DNA of 46,752 nt. Source: Anaerolineae bacterium (GTDB lineage: Bacteria; Chloroflexota; Anaerolineae; Anaerolineales; Villigracilaceae). Of this stretch, positions 2,970 to 13,269 are shown one piece after another. Below the pieces are notes generated by a model. The model was given only the letters and a program-made list of their open reading frames with translations, was not told the origin of the DNA and did no database searches. Every line of letters begins with the position of its first letter. The stretch's first letter is position 1. A program made the translations under genes and the position numbers. The stretch spans positions 1-46,752 of the forward strand of contig JAJPIZ010000043.1 of the NCBI GenBank assembly GCA_021324435.1, in the 5' to 3' direction.

Positions 2970-4004
2970 TCACGAATTCGATGAAACAATCTGGACGCGC
3001 GTTCCTTCGCCGGGTTTATAAAGATACTGCGTTTCGCGCGGGACGTTCGGGCGGGTCCAGCGATAAATGAATTTCGCGTCGCTGGGAGTTAAGTTCACAC
3101 ATCCATGACTGCGCGGCTTGCCATAATCGTTGTGCCAGTATGTTCCGTGAAACGAGACTCCCGTGCTGGTGAAGAAACTGACCCACGGCACGCCGGGCAG
3201 ATCATAACCGCGGCCCGCGCCGGCTTCGCCGTCGTTGGTCATGTGAATCGTCGGGCCTTTGTGGAAGGTCTGGAAATCGCCGAGCGGAGTCTTGGTGCCT
3301 TTGCCGCCGCTCGAACAACGCGCGATCAAAACAGCCTTATCATCCTCGAACGCAGTGACCGATTGCGTGGCAGTATCCACAAAAATATGCTTGCGTTCTT
3401 CGGGAATGTCAGGAGAAAGCAAAGTCAATTCATCGTCCGGGACGAGGCGCATGTCCATGGCCGGGACGTGATACGACTTCTGCAAATGGCTGTCGTAGAT
3501 TTGATACCACACACCTTTTTCGTATTTATTGACGCTGACGCCTGTGACCCAATGTGTCGTTCCGAAATAAACACGATAGCCGGTTTCAGCCCACATACTG
3601 GGATCGGTTCGCGTATCGCTGAACGGGACGGTGATCTCACCGAGTTGTCCTTCGTTGGGAATTTGAAACACAGGCCGCTGATAATTTGATTCGACCGGTT
3701 GCACCCAGCCAGAATAAGTGTAGCCTTCGCCATTAATTTGATACCACTTGCTGTTGTAGGGGTTGCCCGCCTCACCGTCTACTTCAGCGGTGACCTTCAC
3801 CACCTCGTCGCGGCCAAAGATATGAAGCTTCTTCGCATTGAACGAGGGATCGCTGTACAAGTTGAGGCCGCTGAGAGTCATGCGTCCCTGCGTGACAGGC
3901 GCGGCGAGAGCGCGGTCGAATTTCAACTCGGCGAGGAACATTCCAAGCACCCCTGCGCTGGAGAGTTTGAGAAAGTCCCGGCGGGAAAACGGTAAGTTCA
4001 TCAT
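2970..4004 (-). CDS. L,D-transpeptidase (YkuD domain), Tat-exported (copy A)
   Basis: A 344-residue exported enzyme predicted to form 3-3 cross-links in peptidoglycan or attach proteins to it. Residues 7-35 are a twin-arginine signal (SRRDFLKL followed by a hydrophobic core and an Ala-rich cleavage region). Residues ~40-200 hold SH3-like beta domains. The YkuD catalytic domain is C-terminal, with HGTYWHNDYG at 286-295 and the signature SHGCVN at 299-304; Cys302 is the expected nucleophile. The Tat motif next to a YkuD domain is unusual, since most family members use Sec. The protein is closely similar in layout to copy B at 5980-7017. A TACAAT box at 4015-4020 lies 10 nt before the first of two adjacent ATG codons. 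Confidence 0.9.
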   Translation of the reverse strand: MMNLPFSRRDFLKLSSAGVLGMFLAELKFDRALAAPVTQGRMTLSGLNLYSDPSFNAKKLHIFGRDEVVKVTAEVDGEAGNPYNSKWYQINGEGYTYSGWVQPVESNYQRPVFQIPNEGQLGEITVPFSDTRTDPSMWAETGYRVYFGTTHWVTGVSVNKYEKGVWYQIYDSHLQKSYHVPAMDMRLVPDDELTLLSPDIPEERKHIFVDTATQSVTAFEDDKAVLIARCSSGGKGTKTPLGDFQTFHKGPTIHMTNDGEAGAGRGYDLPGVPWVSFFTSTGVSFHGTYWHNDYGKPRSHGCVNLTPSDAKFIYRWTRPNVPRETQYLYKPGEGTRVQIVSSNS

Positions 4005-4014
4005 CGTGGTATAG

Positions 4015-4020
4015 ATTGTA
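4015..4020 (-). promoter_or_regulatory. Probable -10 box of L,D-transpeptidase A
   Basis: TACAAT on the minus strand, 10 nt before the ATG at 4004 and 13 nt before the second ATG at 4001. The leader would be only a few nt long. The rest of 4005-4159 holds no ORF or clear hairpin that I can see. Confidence 0.4.
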
Positions 4021-4136
4021 TCTGATTTACGGAATTGAGTAGATGAGGCATGGGAAAATCTAATAGAACTCTTATTGCTCTTAGCACCAAGGACGATAGT
4101 GCAAGGGGATTATAGATCGTGTATGACTCTTAATCA

Positions 4137-4165
4137 TTAGCATTGTTTCAAAAGGTAGGTATAAT
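4137..4165 (+). promoter_or_regulatory. Promoter of the restriction-modification operon, leaderless
   Basis: TTAGCA (4137-4142), a 17-bp spacer and a perfect TATAAT (4160-4165). The methyltransferase ATG at 4174 follows after 8 nt, so the mRNA would start at or just before the ATG with no room for a Shine-Dalgarno. The promoter sits within the AT-rich segment and probably belongs to the acquired module. Confidence 0.65.
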
Positions 4166-4173
4166 TAGAACAA

Positions 4174-5265
4174 ATGACTACAAAGGTAAATTTTATGGCT
4201 GAGCATACTCTGACCGCTTTTAAAATAGAGAGACTTCCTAAAAAACTGCAAAAGACTTTCCACGCGCTCTACTCCAATGGAGACACGACGGAGACTTATT
4301 TGAAGGTTAATGAAATTCATCAAGGAGACGCCAGAGAGTTGCTTGCAAGAATTGAGCCAAACAGTGTGTCGGTGAGCGTTTGGTCTCCGCCGTATTTTGT
4401 CGGTAAAGAATATGAGGCTTATTTGACCTTTGAGGATTGGCAAAACCTTCTCAGATCTGTGATCCTTCTTCATTTTCCAATTATTAAGCCAGGTGGATTT
4501 TTAGTTATAAACATCGCTGACATTTTAGTCTTCAAAGACCCTGAGATGCCTCGCGTACAAGCAGATGCAATCAACAAAAAACGTTCACCTGTTACTCGGG
4601 AAGATGTCTTGAATGCGATGAAAAAACATCCAAATTACAGTCGCTACCAATTGGCTGAATTGTTGAATTGTAGCGAGCAAACCATTGACCGTCGACTTCA
4701 TGGCAATAATATTCGCGGTGGCAAGCATGAGCCGCAAACAAGAGTCAAAATTGTAGGCGGAATGGTTGAAGATTGGGCATTAGAAGCGGGCTTTTATCCC
4801 TATGATCGCAGAGTTTGGGTAAAGGACGCGGCTTGGGAAAACTCGCGTTGGGCGAGTTTATCTTATCGTTCTGTTGATGAATTTGAATATCTTTACTTTT
4901 TCTGGAAACCTGGAATTACAAAATATGATAGGAATAGACTCTCTGCTGATGAGTGGAAAGAATGGGGCTCGCGAGGCGTCTGGGAATTTCCCTCCGTCCG
5001 AGTCAATGATGATCACGAGGCAAAATTTCCATTGGAATTGCCACGGAGAGTCATCCGTCTGCTTACTGATCCTGGTGAAGTTGTTCTTGATTGTTTCATG
5101 GGTAGCGGCACTACAGCACTTGCCGCAATTCAGGAGAATCGACAATATATTGGCGTTGAACTTGAAAAGAAATATGTCGAATTAGCCGAATCGAAAATCA
5201 AATCGGGAATTCAGAAAAGCCTCATCTCCGAATCAAGGCACAAAAACTATGCTGATAAACCCTGA
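4174..5265 (+). CDS. Site-specific DNA methyltransferase (probable N4-cytosine, beta class) of a type II system
   Basis: A 363-residue SAM-dependent methyltransferase that would protect host DNA from the neighbouring nuclease. Catalytic motif IV is SPPYF at 71-75. The SAM-binding motif I, DCFMGSGTT, is at 306-314 and is followed by GVELEKKYVELAE. Motif IV before motif I is the beta-class order; an S-P-P-Y motif is usual for N4-cytosine enzymes, though some N6-adenine enzymes share it. Between them, residues ~154-176 (YSRYQLAELLNCSEQTIDRRL) look like a helix-turn-helix, perhaps part of target recognition or autoregulation. The gene is clearly AT-richer than its flanks and starts from a leaderless promoter. 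It overlaps the endonuclease gene by 17 nt. Target specificity is inferred only from the partner. Confidence 0.88.
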   Translation: MTTKVNFMAEHTLTAFKIERLPKKLQKTFHALYSNGDTTETYLKVNEIHQGDARELLARIEPNSVSVSVWSPPYFVGKEYEAYLTFEDWQNLLRSVILLHFPIIKPGGFLVINIADILVFKDPEMPRVQADAINKKRSPVTREDVLNAMKKHPNYSRYQLAELLNCSEQTIDRRLHGNNIRGGKHEPQTRVKIVGGMVEDWALEAGFYPYDRRVWVKDAAWENSRWASLSYRSVDEFEYLYFFWKPGITKYDRNRLSADEWKEWGSRGVWEFPSVRVNDDHEAKFPLELPRRVIRLLTDPGEVVLDCFMGSGTTALAAIQENRQYIGVELEKKYVELAESKIKSGIQKSLISESRHKNYADKP

Positions 5266-5962
5266 AGAACTCCGTCACAACCTTGACCGGCTTGAAGAAA
5301 TTGAAAAGGTATCTCTAAGGTTGGTAACTCAAGCAATCTACGATTATCGAATAACCGCTCAAGAAATCTTTCAAGCAGAAAGCGATCAAGTTGCCGATAT
5401 TGGTGAGGACATAACTCGAGAGGCATTAGATCGACTTGGAATGCCCAAAATAGATCAAAGATTGTTTGGTAAAGTTGATTACAAACGCGCCTGCTATCTC
5501 TTCCAGCCTGAATATGCCCTCAAGCAGGCTTTGTTTGTTGACTCAAAAGCTGAGAAAGTAGGTGGACAAGGTACTGCCACTTTGCAGATTTCACAGCTTT
5601 CAATGATAGTGAAGCAGGTTCGGTTTGAAAAGAATATGGAAGTTCCCGGTAAATTGCCGGTGATTGTGAATCTGAAGGGCGAGTCTTATCTAACGACAAC
5701 CATATTTGTCAAATACAACTACGAAGAAGAAAGCTCTGCGAATGTGTTGAAAAGTATTACCATCGCGGCTGTGCCGAATGGCATGTTGCAAGACAGATAT
5801 AATTCCAACGCGCAAGATACGATTTGGATCGCAGGTCGTAATGCGCCGACTTTGGGGGAGGAATTCAGGGTTCGGCTGAGTTTTCATCGTTTGAAGGAAA
5901 AGGCAAATTGGCGGGTTCAATACATTTCTTTGGGCGGAGACAGTTTTGCTTGGGATAAATAG
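5249..5962 (+). CDS. SfiI-like type II restriction endonuclease
   Basis: A 237-residue protein that resembles SfiI, the tetrameric type IIF enzyme cutting GGCC(N5)GGCC, as I recall its sequence. Shared stretches are an N-terminal LEEIEKVSLRLV helix, DITREAL, VDYKRACYL, then ALFVDSKAE, SIFVHF-like TTTIFVKYNY, and a C-terminal RVRLSFHRLKE with WRVQ. Asp77 and the pair Asp98-x-Lys100 are spaced like SfiI Asp79, Asp100 and Lys102, which I remember as its active site. SfiI is about 269 residues, so this copy is slightly shorter. It overlaps the methyltransferase gene by 17 nt, as expected for co-expressed partners with the methylase made first. The stop lies 17 nt from the stop of the converging L,D-transpeptidase B. 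The recognition site may differ from that of SfiI. Confidence 0.82.
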   Translation: MLINPEELRHNLDRLEEIEKVSLRLVTQAIYDYRITAQEIFQAESDQVADIGEDITREALDRLGMPKIDQRLFGKVDYKRACYLFQPEYALKQALFVDSKAEKVGGQGTATLQISQLSMIVKQVRFEKNMEVPGKLPVIVNLKGESYLTTTIFVKYNYEEESSANVLKSITIAAVPNGMLQDRYNSNAQDTIWIAGRNAPTLGEEFRVRLSFHRLKEKANWRVQYISLGGDSFAWDK

Positions 5963-5979
5963 AGCAGAAAAACAGAAAT

Positions 5980-7017
5980 TTACTTTATTATCTCCACCAG
6001 TGTCCCTTTATCTTTGTAAGCAAATTGCTCGCTCGGCTTCACAACAGGATTTGTCCAACGGAAGAGCCATTTCGCCGCGGAGGGAGTCAGGTTCACGCAA
6101 CCGTGACTCTTGGGGTGGCCAAAGTCGTTGTGCCAAAACGTGCCGTGAAGCGAGATACCCGCCTCGGTGATGTACATCACCCACGGCACGCCGGGCAGAT
6201 CGAAGCCGTTGGCGGTGATGTCGCCGGCGGCCATGTGACGCGTGGGACGTTTGTGGTAGGTCATGAAGAGGCCGGTCGGCGTGGAATAGGATCCATCGCG
6301 ATAAATGCCACCGGTCGCGGCGCGCGTGACGAAGACCGGATTCCCGTTTTCGTAAGCGAATACCAACTGATCGCTGAGTCGCACTTGGATTTTTTTATCA
6401 GCGTCGGGAATGTCCGGGGAAAGTGGAGCCAGTTCATCGTCCGGGATGAGGCGGAGATGTTCGCCGGGCGCGTAATACAACTTGTTCCATTTGTCGTCCA
6501 GCACCTGATACCAAATCCTTCCGTCCGGCGCGATGATCGCCGACATGACCCAATGTGTGGTCTCGTAATACATGCGATACGCGACGAAAGAATTCAAGTC
6601 GGTTTGCAAGTGCGCGTCGGTGTACGGCACACTGACCTCGCCGAGCACGCCACCCTTTGGAATGTTTGTCACGGGCGTGTTGAGAATCGTTTGCACGGGT
6701 TGAAGCGTGCCCGAATAGGCAAAGCCCTGATCGCCAATCTCGTACCAGACGCGGTTGTAATCCGAAACATCCTCGCTGACGGTGGCATTGCTGATGGACA
6801 AGACGCTGTCACGCCAATACATCTTGAGGCGATTGGCATTGAACGAAGGTTTGTCGTACAGCCAGATCAAGCGCGAAGTGACGCGTCCCTGTTGGGTTTC
6901 GTATGCGTCTTGAAAAAGCGAATTGAGCGGAAGCCCGCGAGCGAACAACCCAAACAGACCGACCCCGCTCAATTTGAGAAAGTCGCGGCGCGAGAGGAAG
7001 AAGTTGTTTGACTTCAT
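5980..7017 (-). CDS. L,D-transpeptidase (YkuD domain), Tat-exported (copy B)
   Basis: A 345-residue paralogue of copy A with the same order of parts. A twin-arginine signal (LSRRDFLKLSG) lies at residues 8-18 with a hydrophobic core behind it. SH3-like beta segments follow. The YkuD domain carries HGTFWHNDFG and SHGCVN at 304-309, with Cys307 as nucleophile. It would remodel peptidoglycan outside the cytoplasmic membrane. Both copies share short blocks such as LRLIPDDEL/MRLVPDDEL and LSPDIP, so they descend from one duplication. Copy B is now separated from copy A by the AT-rich restriction-modification pair. The ATG at 7017 has no strong Shine-Dalgarno; a dispersed repeat lies directly upstream. 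Confidence 0.9.
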   Translation of the reverse strand: MKSNNFFLSRRDFLKLSGVGLFGLFARGLPLNSLFQDAYETQQGRVTSRLIWLYDKPSFNANRLKMYWRDSVLSISNATVSEDVSDYNRVWYEIGDQGFAYSGTLQPVQTILNTPVTNIPKGGVLGEVSVPYTDAHLQTDLNSFVAYRMYYETTHWVMSAIIAPDGRIWYQVLDDKWNKLYYAPGEHLRLIPDDELAPLSPDIPDADKKIQVRLSDQLVFAYENGNPVFVTRAATGGIYRDGSYSTPTGLFMTYHKRPTRHMAAGDITANGFDLPGVPWVMYITEAGISLHGTFWHNDFGHPKSHGCVNLTPSAAKWLFRWTNPVVKPSEQFAYKDKGTLVEIIK

Positions 7018-10612: not shown

Positions 10613-12394
10613 ATGGCCGAAGAAATAGACAGCCCGTTCGATGAGGCGGTAAACGCGTTGCGGCAGGGGGATAAAGCCCGCGCCAAGGATATTCTGACGC
10701 GCCTGCTTAAAGAGGATCAAAACAACGCGACGTATTGGATCTGGATGAGTGCCGCGGTGGATACCGCCAAAGAACGCGTCTATTGTCTGGAAACTGCGCT
10801 CAAACTGGACCCTGAAAACGGGACTGCCAAACGCGGCCTGATCCTGCTCGGCGCGTTGCCTCCCGACGAAAACACAAAGCCCTTCCCGCTCAATCGCCCG
10901 CGTCCGTGGGAGGACAAAATTCTGCTCGCGCATGAACGGCCCAGGGAAACCGGCCTGCGCGGCAACCCAGTCCTGCGTTTGGCGGGTGTCCTGATCATCG
11001 GCCTTGCAGTGGTTGGCATTGTGATCTATGGATTTATGACACCGCGCGGTGTAACATTCCGCCCATCCATCACATACACGCCGGGGCCATCCCCCACTTT
11101 CACACTCACTCCAACTCTCATCGGCGCGACCGCGCCGCCCACAAAGAAAAGCGCAGGCCCAACTCCGCTGGCTGTTTTGCTTGGCGTTTCGTACACGCCC
11201 ACGCCGCTTTACTTCAATACGCCGCGCTCGCCTCTTTCACAGGATATGTATCGCGGCGCGAAGGCCGCGTATGCCAAAGGCGATTGGGACACCTACATCG
11301 CCGACATGAAACAGATCATGCAAGCCGAACCCAACGCGGCGGATGTACCTTACTACATCGGCGAAGCCTATCGCTTCAAGGGTGAATGCCGAACGGCGCT
11401 GGAGTATTACAACGACTCGCTCAAGGTTGACAATAACTTTGCGCCCGGTTACCTCGGCCTGGCGCGCGCCCGCATCTGCATGGACCCGGGAGCGGGCACA
11501 CTTCCTCTGTATGACCTCGCGCTTCAGGCGGATCCCAACTACGGCGAAGTCTATCTCGACCGCGCCAACTTTAATTTGGTGCGCAAAGATTTCAACGCGG
11601 CCCTGCCTGATCTTGATAAAGCCGCGCAGTTACTGCCCAACTCGGCGCTGGTTCAACTCGCGTATGCCCAGGCGTATCTGCTCGCAGGCGATAATGAAAA
11701 AGCGCTGACCGCCGCGCAAAGAGCCAACAGCATTGACCTGACCCTCCTGCCTTCCTATTATTATCTCGGCAAGACTCTCATCGCAGATGGACAATATGCG
11801 CAAGCCATCAAGCCGCTGGAAACATATCTGATCTATGAACCGGAAGATGGCAGTGCCTATGCCCTGCTCGGACAGGCCTACACCAAGACCGGCGCATACA
11901 AGACCGCCGCGGATACGCTCAGCAAGGCGCTCGATCTCGATTCGACCCAGCGGCAGGCCTGGGTTTATCTCGCCACCTGCGATCTGAAACTCGATAATCT
12001 TGTGGATGCGGAATATAACTTCGGCAAGGCCATACAGTATTACCCCGATTCGTTCGATGCCAACATCGGTCTGACGGAAACGTATTATCGAGAAGGAAAA
12101 TTTGGAAGCGCGTATTTGCAGGCGGAGACCTCCAAGTCCAAAGCGACCAACGATACACAACTGGCGCTGGCGATTTACTGGCGCGCCCTCAGCCAGGTGG
12201 GACGCGGCGCCGTCGGCGACGCCATCAAGGATTTCAAAACGTTACTCGCCATGCCTGAGAGTGTGATGACCCCGCAGATGCGCCAGGACGCGGAAAATTA
12301 CCTCAAGACCCTGCTCACGCCCACTCCCACGCCCAAGGGCGGAGTCAAAACGCCTACGCCGACGAGGACCCCAACGCCAACGAAGAAGCCGTAA
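10613..12394 (+). CDS. Tetratricopeptide-repeat membrane protein
   Basis: A 593-residue protein. A short N-terminal TPR region (residues ~5-75: ALRQGDKARAKDILTRLLKED, then CLETALKLDPENGTAKRG) is followed by a transmembrane segment at ~125-145 (LRLAGVLIIGLAVVGIVIYGF) and a Thr/Pro linker. A large C-terminal array of about nine TPR units runs from ~215 to 565, for example ALEYYNDSLKVDNNFAPGYLGLA and AIKPLETYLIYEPEDGSAYALLGQA. A Pro/Thr/Lys-rich tail ends it. The TPR array is predicted to lie outside the cytoplasmic membrane and to scaffold protein contacts; partners are unknown. The N-terminal half resembles that of L,D-transpeptidase C in layout (TPR, membrane helix, P/T linker). No enzymatic motif is seen. 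Confidence 0.8.
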   Translation: MAEEIDSPFDEAVNALRQGDKARAKDILTRLLKEDQNNATYWIWMSAAVDTAKERVYCLETALKLDPENGTAKRGLILLGALPPDENTKPFPLNRPRPWEDKILLAHERPRETGLRGNPVLRLAGVLIIGLAVVGIVIYGFMTPRGVTFRPSITYTPGPSPTFTLTPTLIGATAPPTKKSAGPTPLAVLLGVSYTPTPLYFNTPRSPLSQDMYRGAKAAYAKGDWDTYIADMKQIMQAEPNAADVPYYIGEAYRFKGECRTALEYYNDSLKVDNNFAPGYLGLARARICMDPGAGTLPLYDLALQADPNYGEVYLDRANFNLVRKDFNAALPDLDKAAQLLPNSALVQLAYAQAYLLAGDNEKALTAAQRANSIDLTLLPSYYYLGKTLIADGQYAQAIKPLETYLIYEPEDGSAYALLGQAYTKTGAYKTAADTLSKALDLDSTQRQAWVYLATCDLKLDNLVDAEYNFGKAIQYYPDSFDANIGLTETYYREGKFGSAYLQAETSKSKATNDTQLALAIYWRALSQVGRGAVGDAIKDFKTLLAMPESVMTPQMRQDAENYLKTLLTPTPTPKGGVKTPTPTRTPTPTKKP

Positions 12395-12483
12395 CGTTTA
12401 GATAAGACGGGCTCCGATATTTGGTATCATAACTGGCAACATAAACAAATTCCAAACGAAAACAATTTGCAAAAGAGGAGTTT

Positions 12484-12705
12484 ATGTTTGATTTAATCAT
12501 GTCTGTTCTTCTTGCTCTATTTGCCCTTCTCATTGCTCTAGATGCTTTTCAAAAATGGAGAAAGAACAAAGCTATATGGCTTATTCTAGCTTCGGTTACG
12601 GGCTTACTTTCCGCATTGGCAGCGTTCATAAATTGGTCAAACGCCTTCTATGGGTTATTCCTAACAATAATTTTCTACTTGATCGGGCGAAGCAAGAAGA
12701 ATTAG
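12484..12705 (+). CDS. Small hydrophobic membrane protein, 73 aa
   Basis: No family is recognised. Three hydrophobic segments fill the chain: MFDLIMSVLLALFALLIALD, then AIWLILASVTGLLSALAAFI, then FYGLFLTIIFYLI, with a basic RSKKN tail and a basic first loop (KWRKNK). Two or three membrane passes are likely. An AAGAGGAG Shine-Dalgarno ending 4 nt before the ATG supports expression. The base composition is AT-richer than the neighbours, which hints at acquisition or a distinct origin. Confidence 0.6.
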   Translation: MFDLIMSVLLALFALLIALDAFQKWRKNKAIWLILASVTGLLSALAAFINWSNAFYGLFLTIIFYLIGRSKKN

Positions 12706-12726
12706 GTCTGTACACGAATTCAAATT

Positions 12727-12808
12727 GTGTCTCTCTGAGCGAGGCAAAGAGTCCCGTTCTTCTAGCAAAAAGCGAGATTCTTCGCCGCTTTGCGGCTCAG
12801 AATGACAT
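12727..12808. repeat. Dispersed palindromic repeat, GTCATTCTGAGC family (copy 2, reversed)
   Basis: It lies in reverse orientation to copy 1: the right end GCGGCTCAGAATGACAT is the reverse complement of the family start. Inner GAAGAATC-type sequence appears as GCGAGATTCTTCGC. It occupies the gap after the small membrane protein gene. Confidence 0.55.
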
Positions 12809-12892
12809 GCCAAAAGTATTTTCACGTGCCCTCAAGCATTTCCGGAATTGAATTGTGTTGCGCAGTTTTGTAATTGGATAACACTGATAACG

Positions 12893-12924
12893 GGTGGTCA
12901 CTTTAAAAGTGACCACCGGTTTTA
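12893..12924 (+). terminator. Hairpin between convergent genes, probable terminator
   Basis: GGTGGTCACTTT pairs with AAAGTGACCACC across a tiny loop (stem of about 11 bp), followed on the plus strand by GGTTTTATTT. It lies between the small membrane gene and the DUF971 gene and could act on both. The U-tract is better on the plus strand. Confidence 0.6.
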
Positions 12925-13269
12925 TTTCCCATACTTCGCTCGATCTTCCTCGCAGGGACATAATGCCCGCAGATAATGCCAATTATAAATCCCATAATCG
13001 TGGCCGTCCTCCCAGACGATGGTCAGCGCGTAGGAGCCAACGGCTTTGACATTGCTGATGCGCGTGGCGGGCGTCTCCGCCATCGGCAATTCAAAGACCT
13101 CCGGGTCCGGTTCAGGCCTCATGTTTTCGTGCCCGCCGCGGCACGAGGCGCACGGACAGGCCGCGCGCAATAATCCAAATGGATAGATGCTCACGTGTCC
13201 ATCGTCCCATTGGATGGTGAACTCGCGCGTCTTTTTATTGGCGGTGATGTTGGTGGGTTTTTCGGTCAT
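12922..13269 (-). CDS. DUF971 / GBBH-like N-terminal domain protein
   Basis: A 115-residue single-domain protein. The pattern of the domain (N-terminal domain of gamma-butyrobetaine hydroxylase, DUF971) is clear: FTIQWDDGHVSIYPFGLLRAACPCASCRG at residues ~17-45, then VKAVGSYALTIVWEDGHDYGIYNWHYLRALCPC near the end. In hydroxylases the domain carries Cys ligands for a structural zinc; here Cys-x-Cys-x2-Cys and a C-terminal Cys-x-Cys are present. Stand-alone bacterial versions lie near iron-sulfur or respiratory genes in some genomes, but their function is not established. The ATG at 13269 is preceded by AAGGA. A hairpin directly follows the stop. Confidence 0.85.
   Translation of the reverse strand: MTEKPTNITANKKTREFTIQWDDGHVSIYPFGLLRAACPCASCRGGHENMRPEPDPEVFELPMAETPATRISNVKAVGSYALTIVWEDGHDYGIYNWHYLRALCPCEEDRAKYGK

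What the first reader, a model, noticed from the sequence alone, without database searches (positions are those of the whole stretch)
4137..5962. SfiI-like restriction endonuclease with a leaderless methyltransferase partner carrying an HTH insert
The 237-residue endonuclease shares collinear blocks with SfiI as remembered, including Asp77 and Asp98-x-Lys100 at the same 21-residue spacing as SfiI Asp79 and Asp100-x-Lys102. SfiI homologues are uncommon. The methyltransferase has beta-class motif order and a predicted helix-turn-helix between motifs IV and I. The transcript appears leaderless, with the methylase first and a 17-nt overlap. Family knowledge: SfiI is a tetramer that cuts two copies of an interrupted GGCC palindrome. 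Specificity and activity here are inference.
Basis: partly seen in the sequence, partly recalled or inferred. Interest (0 to 1): 0.65.

Follow-up and report, generated by a model that had tools for sequence, protein, structure and literature searches.

The report
SfiI-like restriction system, BglI-type target predicted
A bacterium has acquired a small two-gene DNA-defence cassette whose cutting enzyme is built like the laboratory enzyme SfiI, but comparison with its relatives suggests that it reads the shorter DNA site of another enzyme, BglI.

Summary
The core observation is right. ORF 5249-5962 is an SfiI-family endonuclease (Pfam E 2e-58; SfiI structure 2EZV E 3.5e-29) with SfiI's catalytic residues, preceded with a 17-nt overlap by a beta-class methyltransferase carrying a helix-turn-helix (HTH). 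'Leaderless' is not supported: relatives start at the second ATG (4195), which has a Shine-Dalgarno. The cassette is a low-GC insertion between two genes that adjoin in four congeners.

SfiI specificity is probably wrong. The residue modelled to read SfiI's outer base pair, and the Tyr68-Gln30 contact between SfiI's dimers, are not kept in this clade. The same methyltransferase lineage also partners BglI-type endonucleases, and its recognition-helix segment is its best conserved stretch (0.948, n=29), also where no such endonuclease lies nearby. In Roseiflexus, where all six genomes carry the system or its remnants, GCC-N5-GGC is the most depleted of 18,699 bipartite motif tests (384 observed, 717 expected), in contexts SfiI could not cut.

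I predict GCCNNNNNGGC as target and the HTH as the methyltransferase's site reader. The window's own genome shows no depletion, so specificity rests on relatives about 60% identical. A second depleted motif, GAC-N5-GTC, is unexplained.

The parts
4077..5979 (.). Inserted cassette (boundaries by eye, within some tens of bases)
   Evidence: The two flanking L,D-transpeptidase genes lie 78-203 bp apart in congeners G160, G248, G028, G506; GC 0.416-0.426 against 0.531-0.584 in neighbouring kilobases
4137..4165 (+). Promoter-like TTAGCA-17-TATAAT
   Evidence: 10 of 12 matches (the scan found 5 promoter-like sites against 4.0 expected, so the scan alone is no evidence); TATAAT kept at this place in 10 of 29 relatives, window included
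4168..4179 (+). Degenerate half of a LexA-type box (GAAC kept, right half lost)
   Evidence: Compared with exact GAACN4GTTC in 6 of 29 relatives
4182..4187 (+). Shine-Dalgarno AAAGGT for the start at 4195
   Evidence: Sequence; similar purine-rich stretches in relatives
4195..5265 (+). Beta-class amino-methyltransferase; upstream ATG at 4174 less likely as start
   Evidence: PF01555 7.1e-41; starts of relatives
4597..4701 (+). Helix-turn-helix (residues 142-176 of the 363-residue frame), proposed target-reading module
   Evidence: AF2 helices, weak Pfam HTH matches in 9 of 9 members scanned, segment 166-183 conservation 0.948
5249..5265 (+). 17-nt overlap of methyltransferase and endonuclease frames
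5249..5962 (+). SfiI-family endonuclease; catalytic E53, D77, D98, K100
   Evidence: PF11487 2.1e-58, 2EZV 3.5e-29, Foldseek 2ezv 8.4e-10 and 1dmu 3.7e-5 on a low-confidence model

Best explanation
A two-gene Type II restriction-modification cassette acquired by horizontal transfer. The endonuclease has the SfiI/BglI fold and SfiI's catalytic residues (shown by homology) and by inference cuts unmodified GCCNNNNNGGC, the BglI site, rather than SfiI's GGCCNNNNNGGCC. The methyltransferase marks the same site, by inference as G(m4C)CNNNNNGGC as M.BglI does, and reads it largely through the helix-turn-helix inserted after its catalytic motif (inferred from invariance). The methyltransferase is translated first and the endonuclease follows across the 17-nt overlap (inferred). 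The same methyltransferase lineage is found with SfiI-like and with BglI-type endonucleases (shown).
For: SfiI family. Insertion. Clade lacks SfiI Arg109 (Thr in 19 of 21 covering rows, Arg in none), modelled in PMC548270 to contact the outer G. Methyltransferase shared with four BglI-type nucleases. M.BglI product: PMC4882945. Segment 166-183 conservation 0.948, highest of 15 segments, 29 rows, kept in L157 and L162 where no SfiI/BglI-type nuclease was found in the stretch held. GCC-N5-GGC rank 1 of 18,699 in 1.08 Mb from five Roseiflexus genomes, 384 against 717; 301 against 635 in contexts without GGCC; ratio 0.49-0.66 in each genome; whole-genome N5/N6 0.448-0.555 against 0.571-0.99 in the 20 other genomes counted.
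Against: The window's genome shows no depletion (N5/N6 0.815; congeners without the system 0.736-0.805). Other long-branch hosts do not stand out (G222 0.655 against congener G260 0.663); G238 is the top palindrome in the sampled scan (0.72, rank 1 of 569) but not by whole-genome N5/N6 (0.868; congeners without it 0.731-0.967). Contexts containing GGCC are not depleted (83 against 82). GAC-N5-GTC is also depleted in the same genomes and unexplained. The Arg109 role is from a 2005 homology model; the crystal-structure contacts were not seen. The scan was restricted to spacings 4-12 after a first scan with spacings from 1 ranked the motif 38-61.
Confidence: 0.65

Rival explanations
1. A plain SfiI isoschizomer: tetrameric, cutting two copies of GGCCN5GGCC, with a methyltransferase of the same or a broader specificity.
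For: 35.5% identity to SfiI over 220 columns, catalytic residues and the core arginines kept. A methyltransferase of BglI specificity would also protect SfiI sites. The 8-bp site cannot be tested by avoidance in Roseiflexus because GGCC is nearly absent there.
Against: Arg109 absent and loop two residues longer in the clade, Tyr68-Gln30 not kept; avoidance in Roseiflexus falls on sites that lack the outer G:C pair.
Confidence: 0.2
2. The avoidance of GCCN5GGC in Roseiflexus belongs to another, unseen restriction system; this clade's specificity is then open.
For: Roseiflexus also avoids GGCC (0.66-1.74 per kb against 15-23 for GCGC) and GAC-N5-GTC, so it has a history of several systems.
Against: Each of the six genomes has one PF11487 match, and that model also detects the BglI-type nucleases, so no separate BglI homologue of that kind was seen; the depleted motif is the site expected from the shared methyltransferase lineage.
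Confidence: 0.15
3. The HTH of the methyltransferase is an operator-binding domain that regulates the operon, not the target reader.
For: A palindromic GAACN4GTTC box lies two bases after the -10 in 6 of 29 relatives; other methyltransferases are known to regulate their operons (recalled).
Against: The helix segment is invariant in members without that box and in L157 and L162 without an SfiI/BglI-type nuclease. The box has the form of the hosts' lexA and recA boxes, so LexA is a candidate.
Confidence: 0.15

Closest known systems
SfiI (Streptomyces fimbriatus, GGCCNNNN^NGGCC, PDB 2EZV)
   Same: Family PF11487, collinear over residues 11-232, catalytic E/D/D-x-K, core arginines 218 and 220
   Different: 35.5% identity; recognition loop two residues longer, Arg109 to Thr, Lys208 to Arg, Ser210 to Ala, Tyr68 to Pro, Gln30 to Asp; predicted 6-bp target
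BglI (Bacillus globigii, GCCNNNN^NGGC, PDB 1DMU)
   Same: Same superfamily (Foldseek 3.7e-5; PF14562 exactly at cut-off, 25.0 bits); predicted target; methyltransferase lineage shared with BglI-type nucleases
   Different: The endonuclease is SfiI-like, not BglI-like, in sequence (198 against 25 bits); gene order methyltransferase-endonuclease in tandem rather than convergent
PADLOC MTase_II PDLC03260 (identity of its founder not known here)
   Same: 529.1 bits over residues 40-348, HTH included; all seven family members scanned hit it best
   Different: No functional information attached; that it stands for M.BglI is a guess

Membership tests
SfiI endonuclease family (PF11487) | Match above the Pfam cut-off and collinear alignment to SfiI | tested here: met
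   198.4 bits against cut-off 25; 2EZV 3.5e-29
SfiI endonuclease family (PF11487) | Catalytic E55, D79, D100, K102 | tested here: met
   E53, D77, D98, K100; kept in 20 of 20 covering rows each
SfiI proper (Type IIF, 8-bp site) | Outer base-pair contact Arg109 (homology model, PMC548270) | tested here: not met
   Thr in the window; 19 Thr, 1 Ser, 1 Trp in 21 covering rows
SfiI proper (Type IIF, 8-bp site) | Tyr68-Gln30 contact between dimers (PMC2082129) | tested here: not met
   Pro66 and Asp32; Tyr in 1 of 19 and Gln in 0 of 20 covering rows
SfiI proper (Type IIF, 8-bp site) | Tetramer cutting two sites together | not testable with these tools
   Needs protein
SfiI proper (Type IIF, 8-bp site) | Target GGCCN5GGCC | tested here: inconclusive
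   No avoidance in the own genome (133 against 107 for the reversed pattern); in Roseiflexus 6 against 9.2, too few
BglI specificity (GCCN5GGC) | Depletion of this site in long-term hosts | tested here: met
   In Roseiflexus, rank 1 of 18,699; not in the window's own genome
BglI endonuclease family (PF14562) | Best match to the BglI model | tested here: not met
   25.0 bits, at cut-off, against 198.4 for SfiI
Beta-class amino-methyltransferase | Catalytic SPPY before SAM motif; N6_N4_Mtase | tested here: met
   PF01555 7.1e-41, sequence
m4C (rather than m6A) methyltransferase | Product on DNA | not testable with these tools
   SPPY and the BglI/SfiI analogues (PMC4882945, PMC3874165) point to m4C
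Leaderless transcript | Start codon at or next to the transcription start | tested here: not met
   Relatives start at the Met8 position, with a Shine-Dalgarno; no RNA data

The most novel reading that the evidence does not exclude
One methyltransferase lineage, reading GCCN5GGC through an inserted helix-turn-helix, has been partnered by both SfiI-fold and BglI-type endonucleases, and the SfiI-fold enzymes of this clade cut the 6-bp BglI site. SfiI's 8-bp site and coupled tetramer would then be a speciality within the family and not its rule.
Probability: 0.5. Interest if true: 0.6.

Novelty: new variant of a known kind. Interest (0 to 1): 0.5.

Why it matters
SfiI and BglI are standard examples of related folds that read 8-bp and 6-bp interrupted sites. 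A natural clade with SfiI's body and, as predicted, BglI's site would show which residues add the outer base pair and which couple two dimers. It also warns against reading SfiI specificity or two-site behaviour from a family name, and shows that site avoidance in long-term hosts can point to the target of an enzyme that nobody has assayed.

Tried and rejected
Leaderless start: not borne out by the starts of relatives. SfiI 8-bp avoidance: none in the own genome; spacing-6 and reversed-pattern controls show that GGCC counts are ruled by other forces. AF2 models were poor (means 46.8 and 51.4, seven sequences each); the endonuclease model still found SfiI and BglI first, and of the methyltransferase model only the HTH was used. 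PADLOC PDLC03260 as M.BglI: BglI-type partner L042 scores highest of seven scanned (535.6 bits), but this proves nothing. The endonuclease gave no relative in viral contigs although the methyltransferase scan later found one (L158), so one search missed it. Methylome data: passages of PMC6329791 show other motifs for Chloroflexi; a term search of PMC4752239 found none of my terms. Searches for GGCCNNNNNGGCC, M.SfiI, BglI methyltransferase and GCCNNNNNGGC listed no paper that I recognised as describing this variant; REBASE and subscription papers were not searchable. LexA control of the operon: suggestive in relatives, half box only in the window, left as a side note. GAC-N5-GTC as degenerate recognition by the same enzyme: disfavoured because mixed half-sites are mostly not depleted (0.81-1.55). 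First unbiased scan, with spacings from 1, ranked GCC-N5-GGC 41, 38 and 61 in three Roseiflexus sets (596 in G238, 1842 in G118) because motifs at spacings 1-2 dominate; one search repeated it for spacings 4-12, a choice made. The conservation segment 166-183 was also drawn after looking at the alignment; the whole HTH (140-182) averages 0.798.

Full report
WHAT IS THERE. GC is 0.416-0.426 in 4001-6000 against 0.531-0.584 in the neighbouring kilobases. The flanking genes on the minus strand are L,D-transpeptidases (YkuD 1e-20 and 1e-19); their best matches lie 78-203 bp apart in four congeners G160, G248, G028 and G506. So about 4077-5979 is an insertion that holds these two genes and no other gene that I recognised. 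None of the three same-genus genomes searched has a PF11487 match, while 18 of 400 Chloroflexota genomes do, and 18 of 158 genomes of the class of G166.

ENDONUCLEASE. PF11487 2.1e-58, SfiI 2EZV 3.5e-29, PADLOC 4.7e-31. Even a low-confidence model finds the two SfiI chains first and BglI next. E53, D77, D98 and K100 match SfiI's catalytic set and R207 and R209 match SfiI Arg218 and Arg220 (kept in 21 of 21 covering rows). Three things differ from SfiI across the clade (24 rows, several of them fragments): the recognition loop is two residues longer in most rows and SfiI Arg109, modelled in PMC548270 (parts 1-2 of 5 read) to contact the outer G, is Thr in 19 of 21 covering rows and Arg in none; Lys208 is Arg in 21 of 21 and Ser210 is Ala in 19 of 21; and the Tyr68-Gln30 contact between dimers, whose loss makes SfiI most active at a single site (PMC2082129, passages), is Pro66 and Asp32 in the window (Tyr in 1 of 19, Gln in 0 of 20 rows). 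SfiI's two-site behaviour should therefore not be assumed. The Arg109 role rests on a homology model; I did not see the crystal-structure paper.

METHYLTRANSFERASE. Beta order, PF01555 7.1e-41. The best solved relative aligns to residues 42-120 and 244-342; the unaligned stretch between them holds the helix-turn-helix: helices at block means 80, 88, 77 and 67 in a model with mean 46.8, and weak, sub-cut-off HTH matches in 9 of 9 members scanned. Over 29 relatives the segment 166-183 has mean conservation 0.948, the highest of 15 segments compared, above the SAM motif (0.902); the whole HTH 140-182 is 0.798 (segments were drawn after seeing the alignment). The segment is unchanged in kind in a Geoalkalibacter subterraneus plasmid and in viral contig L157, where no SfiI- or BglI-type nuclease was found in the 8.9 and 10.9 kb held; the plasmid gene does follow a NERD nuclease-like gene. 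An operator-binding domain would have less reason to stay so constant there, so I read it as the target reader (inference). The start is most likely Met8 (4195): in L002, L004, L005, L030 and L033 the frame opens 1-5 codons before that place, and AAAGGT precedes it.

SHARED METHYLTRANSFERASE. Four loci (L042, L043, L075, L076) carry the same methyltransferase lineage (59-65% identical to the window's) convergent with BglI-type endonucleases: PF14562 2.6e-62 to 1e-80, and 1DMU 5.7e-45 and 1.3e-37 for the two that I searched. In the tree the four stand together (87/98, not a starred fork) among rows with SfiI-like partners (midpoint root, several long branches, so the direction of any swap is open). 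A viral contig, L158, holds an SfiI-like endonuclease (PF11487 5e-67) before its methyltransferase. M.BglI makes G(m4C)CNNNNNGGC in B. globigii (PMC4882945, whole text); I could not compare its sequence.

TARGET. If that lineage kept one specificity, its SfiI-like partners should share GCCN5GGC. Site avoidance gave an independent test. All six genomes of the genus of G166 have one PF11487 match: G166, G323, G341 and G433 have endonuclease and methyltransferase, in G335 the endonuclease frame has one stop, and in G432 only the end of the endonuclease was found, with no methyltransferase in the 4 kb taken. In 1,081,923 bases sampled from five of them I counted every pair of trinucleotides at spacings 4-12 against the same pair at other spacings of the same codon phase. 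GCC-N5-GGC is rank 1 of 18,699 tests, 384 against 717, z -11.5. By genome the ratio is 0.49, 0.54, 0.66, 0.49 and 0.56. Eight of the nine palindromic one-base variants give 0.85-1.06; the ninth, GAC-N5-GTC, gives 0.45. GC-N7-GC without the full half-sites gives 1.00 and three classes with one changed half 1.00-1.08. By outer base, contexts without GGCC sum to 301 against 635, sites that SfiI could not cut; contexts with GGCC sum to 83 against 82, among them the SfiI site itself, 6 against 9.2 (sums). The lack of depletion there may reflect recently arrived DNA or a GGCC methylase (inference); GGCC occurs at only 0.66-1.74 per kb. Whole-genome N5/N6 ratios are 0.448-0.555 in five Roseiflexus genomes and 0.571-0.99 in the other 20 counted.

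RESULTS AGAINST OR WEAK. The window's genome shows no depletion (0.815; congeners 0.736-0.805), which fits a recent arrival but gives no support. G238, a host in another genus, has GCC-N5-GGC as its most depleted palindrome in the sample (1 of 569, ratio 0.72; G118 without the system 5 of 549, 0.83), but by whole-genome N5/N6 (0.868) it does not stand out from five congeners without it (0.731-0.967). G222 (0.655) equals its congener G260 (0.663). GAC-N5-GTC, which I recall as the AhdI site, is depleted in the Roseiflexus samples (0.30-0.60) and in G238 (0.47), less in G118 (0.83). Mixed half-sites mostly are not, so a second system is the simplest reading, but I did not find one. The scan's spacing range was narrowed. 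Transfer from Roseiflexus enzymes (58-64% identical) to the window is inference, helped by shared core recognition residues.

REGULATION. In 6 of 29 methyltransferase loci an exact GAACN4GTTC box starts two bases after TATAAT, with near copies in a few others. It has the form of boxes before lexA (GAACGCATGTTC) and recA (GAACATCTGTGC) of the window's own genome. The window keeps the left half only. SOS control in those relatives is possible and untested.

VERDICT. The predicted BglI-type target and the HTH as site reader make it a variant worth a bench test.

Noticed in passing
Upstream of the methyltransferase in L007, L029, L030, L032, L034, L036; half box at window 4168-4179: GAACN4GTTC box two bases after the -10, of the form of the hosts' lexA and recA boxes: possibly an SOS-controlled restriction system in those relatives.
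   Followed up: partly
Roseiflexus samples L163-L182 and L223-L262; G238 sample L203-L222: GAC-N5-GTC is the second most depleted bipartite motif (105 against 235 in Roseiflexus) and is at 0.47 in G238; the owner is unknown, an AhdI-like system is a guess.
   Followed up: partly
Roseiflexus samples L163-L182 and L223-L262: GGCC is nearly absent (0.66-1.74 per kb against 15-23 per kb for GCGC), as if under long restriction at GGCC.
   Followed up: no
L158:4238-5975 and L157:4974-6029 (IMG/VR contigs): A viral contig carries an SfiI-like endonuclease and methyltransferase pair, and another carries the methyltransferase without such an endonuclease in the stretch held.
   Followed up: partly
L034, L046, L077, L074: Interrupted or partial endonuclease frames in relatives, as if the system decays; some are low-quality assemblies.
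   Followed up: no
G000:C50:19144-19163 (L078): TATAATTAGAACAAATGTTC before an ATPase-like ORF in the window's own genome, sharing its first 17 bases with the window's promoter.
   Followed up: no
window 12001-13000: A second GC dip (0.472).
   Followed up: no
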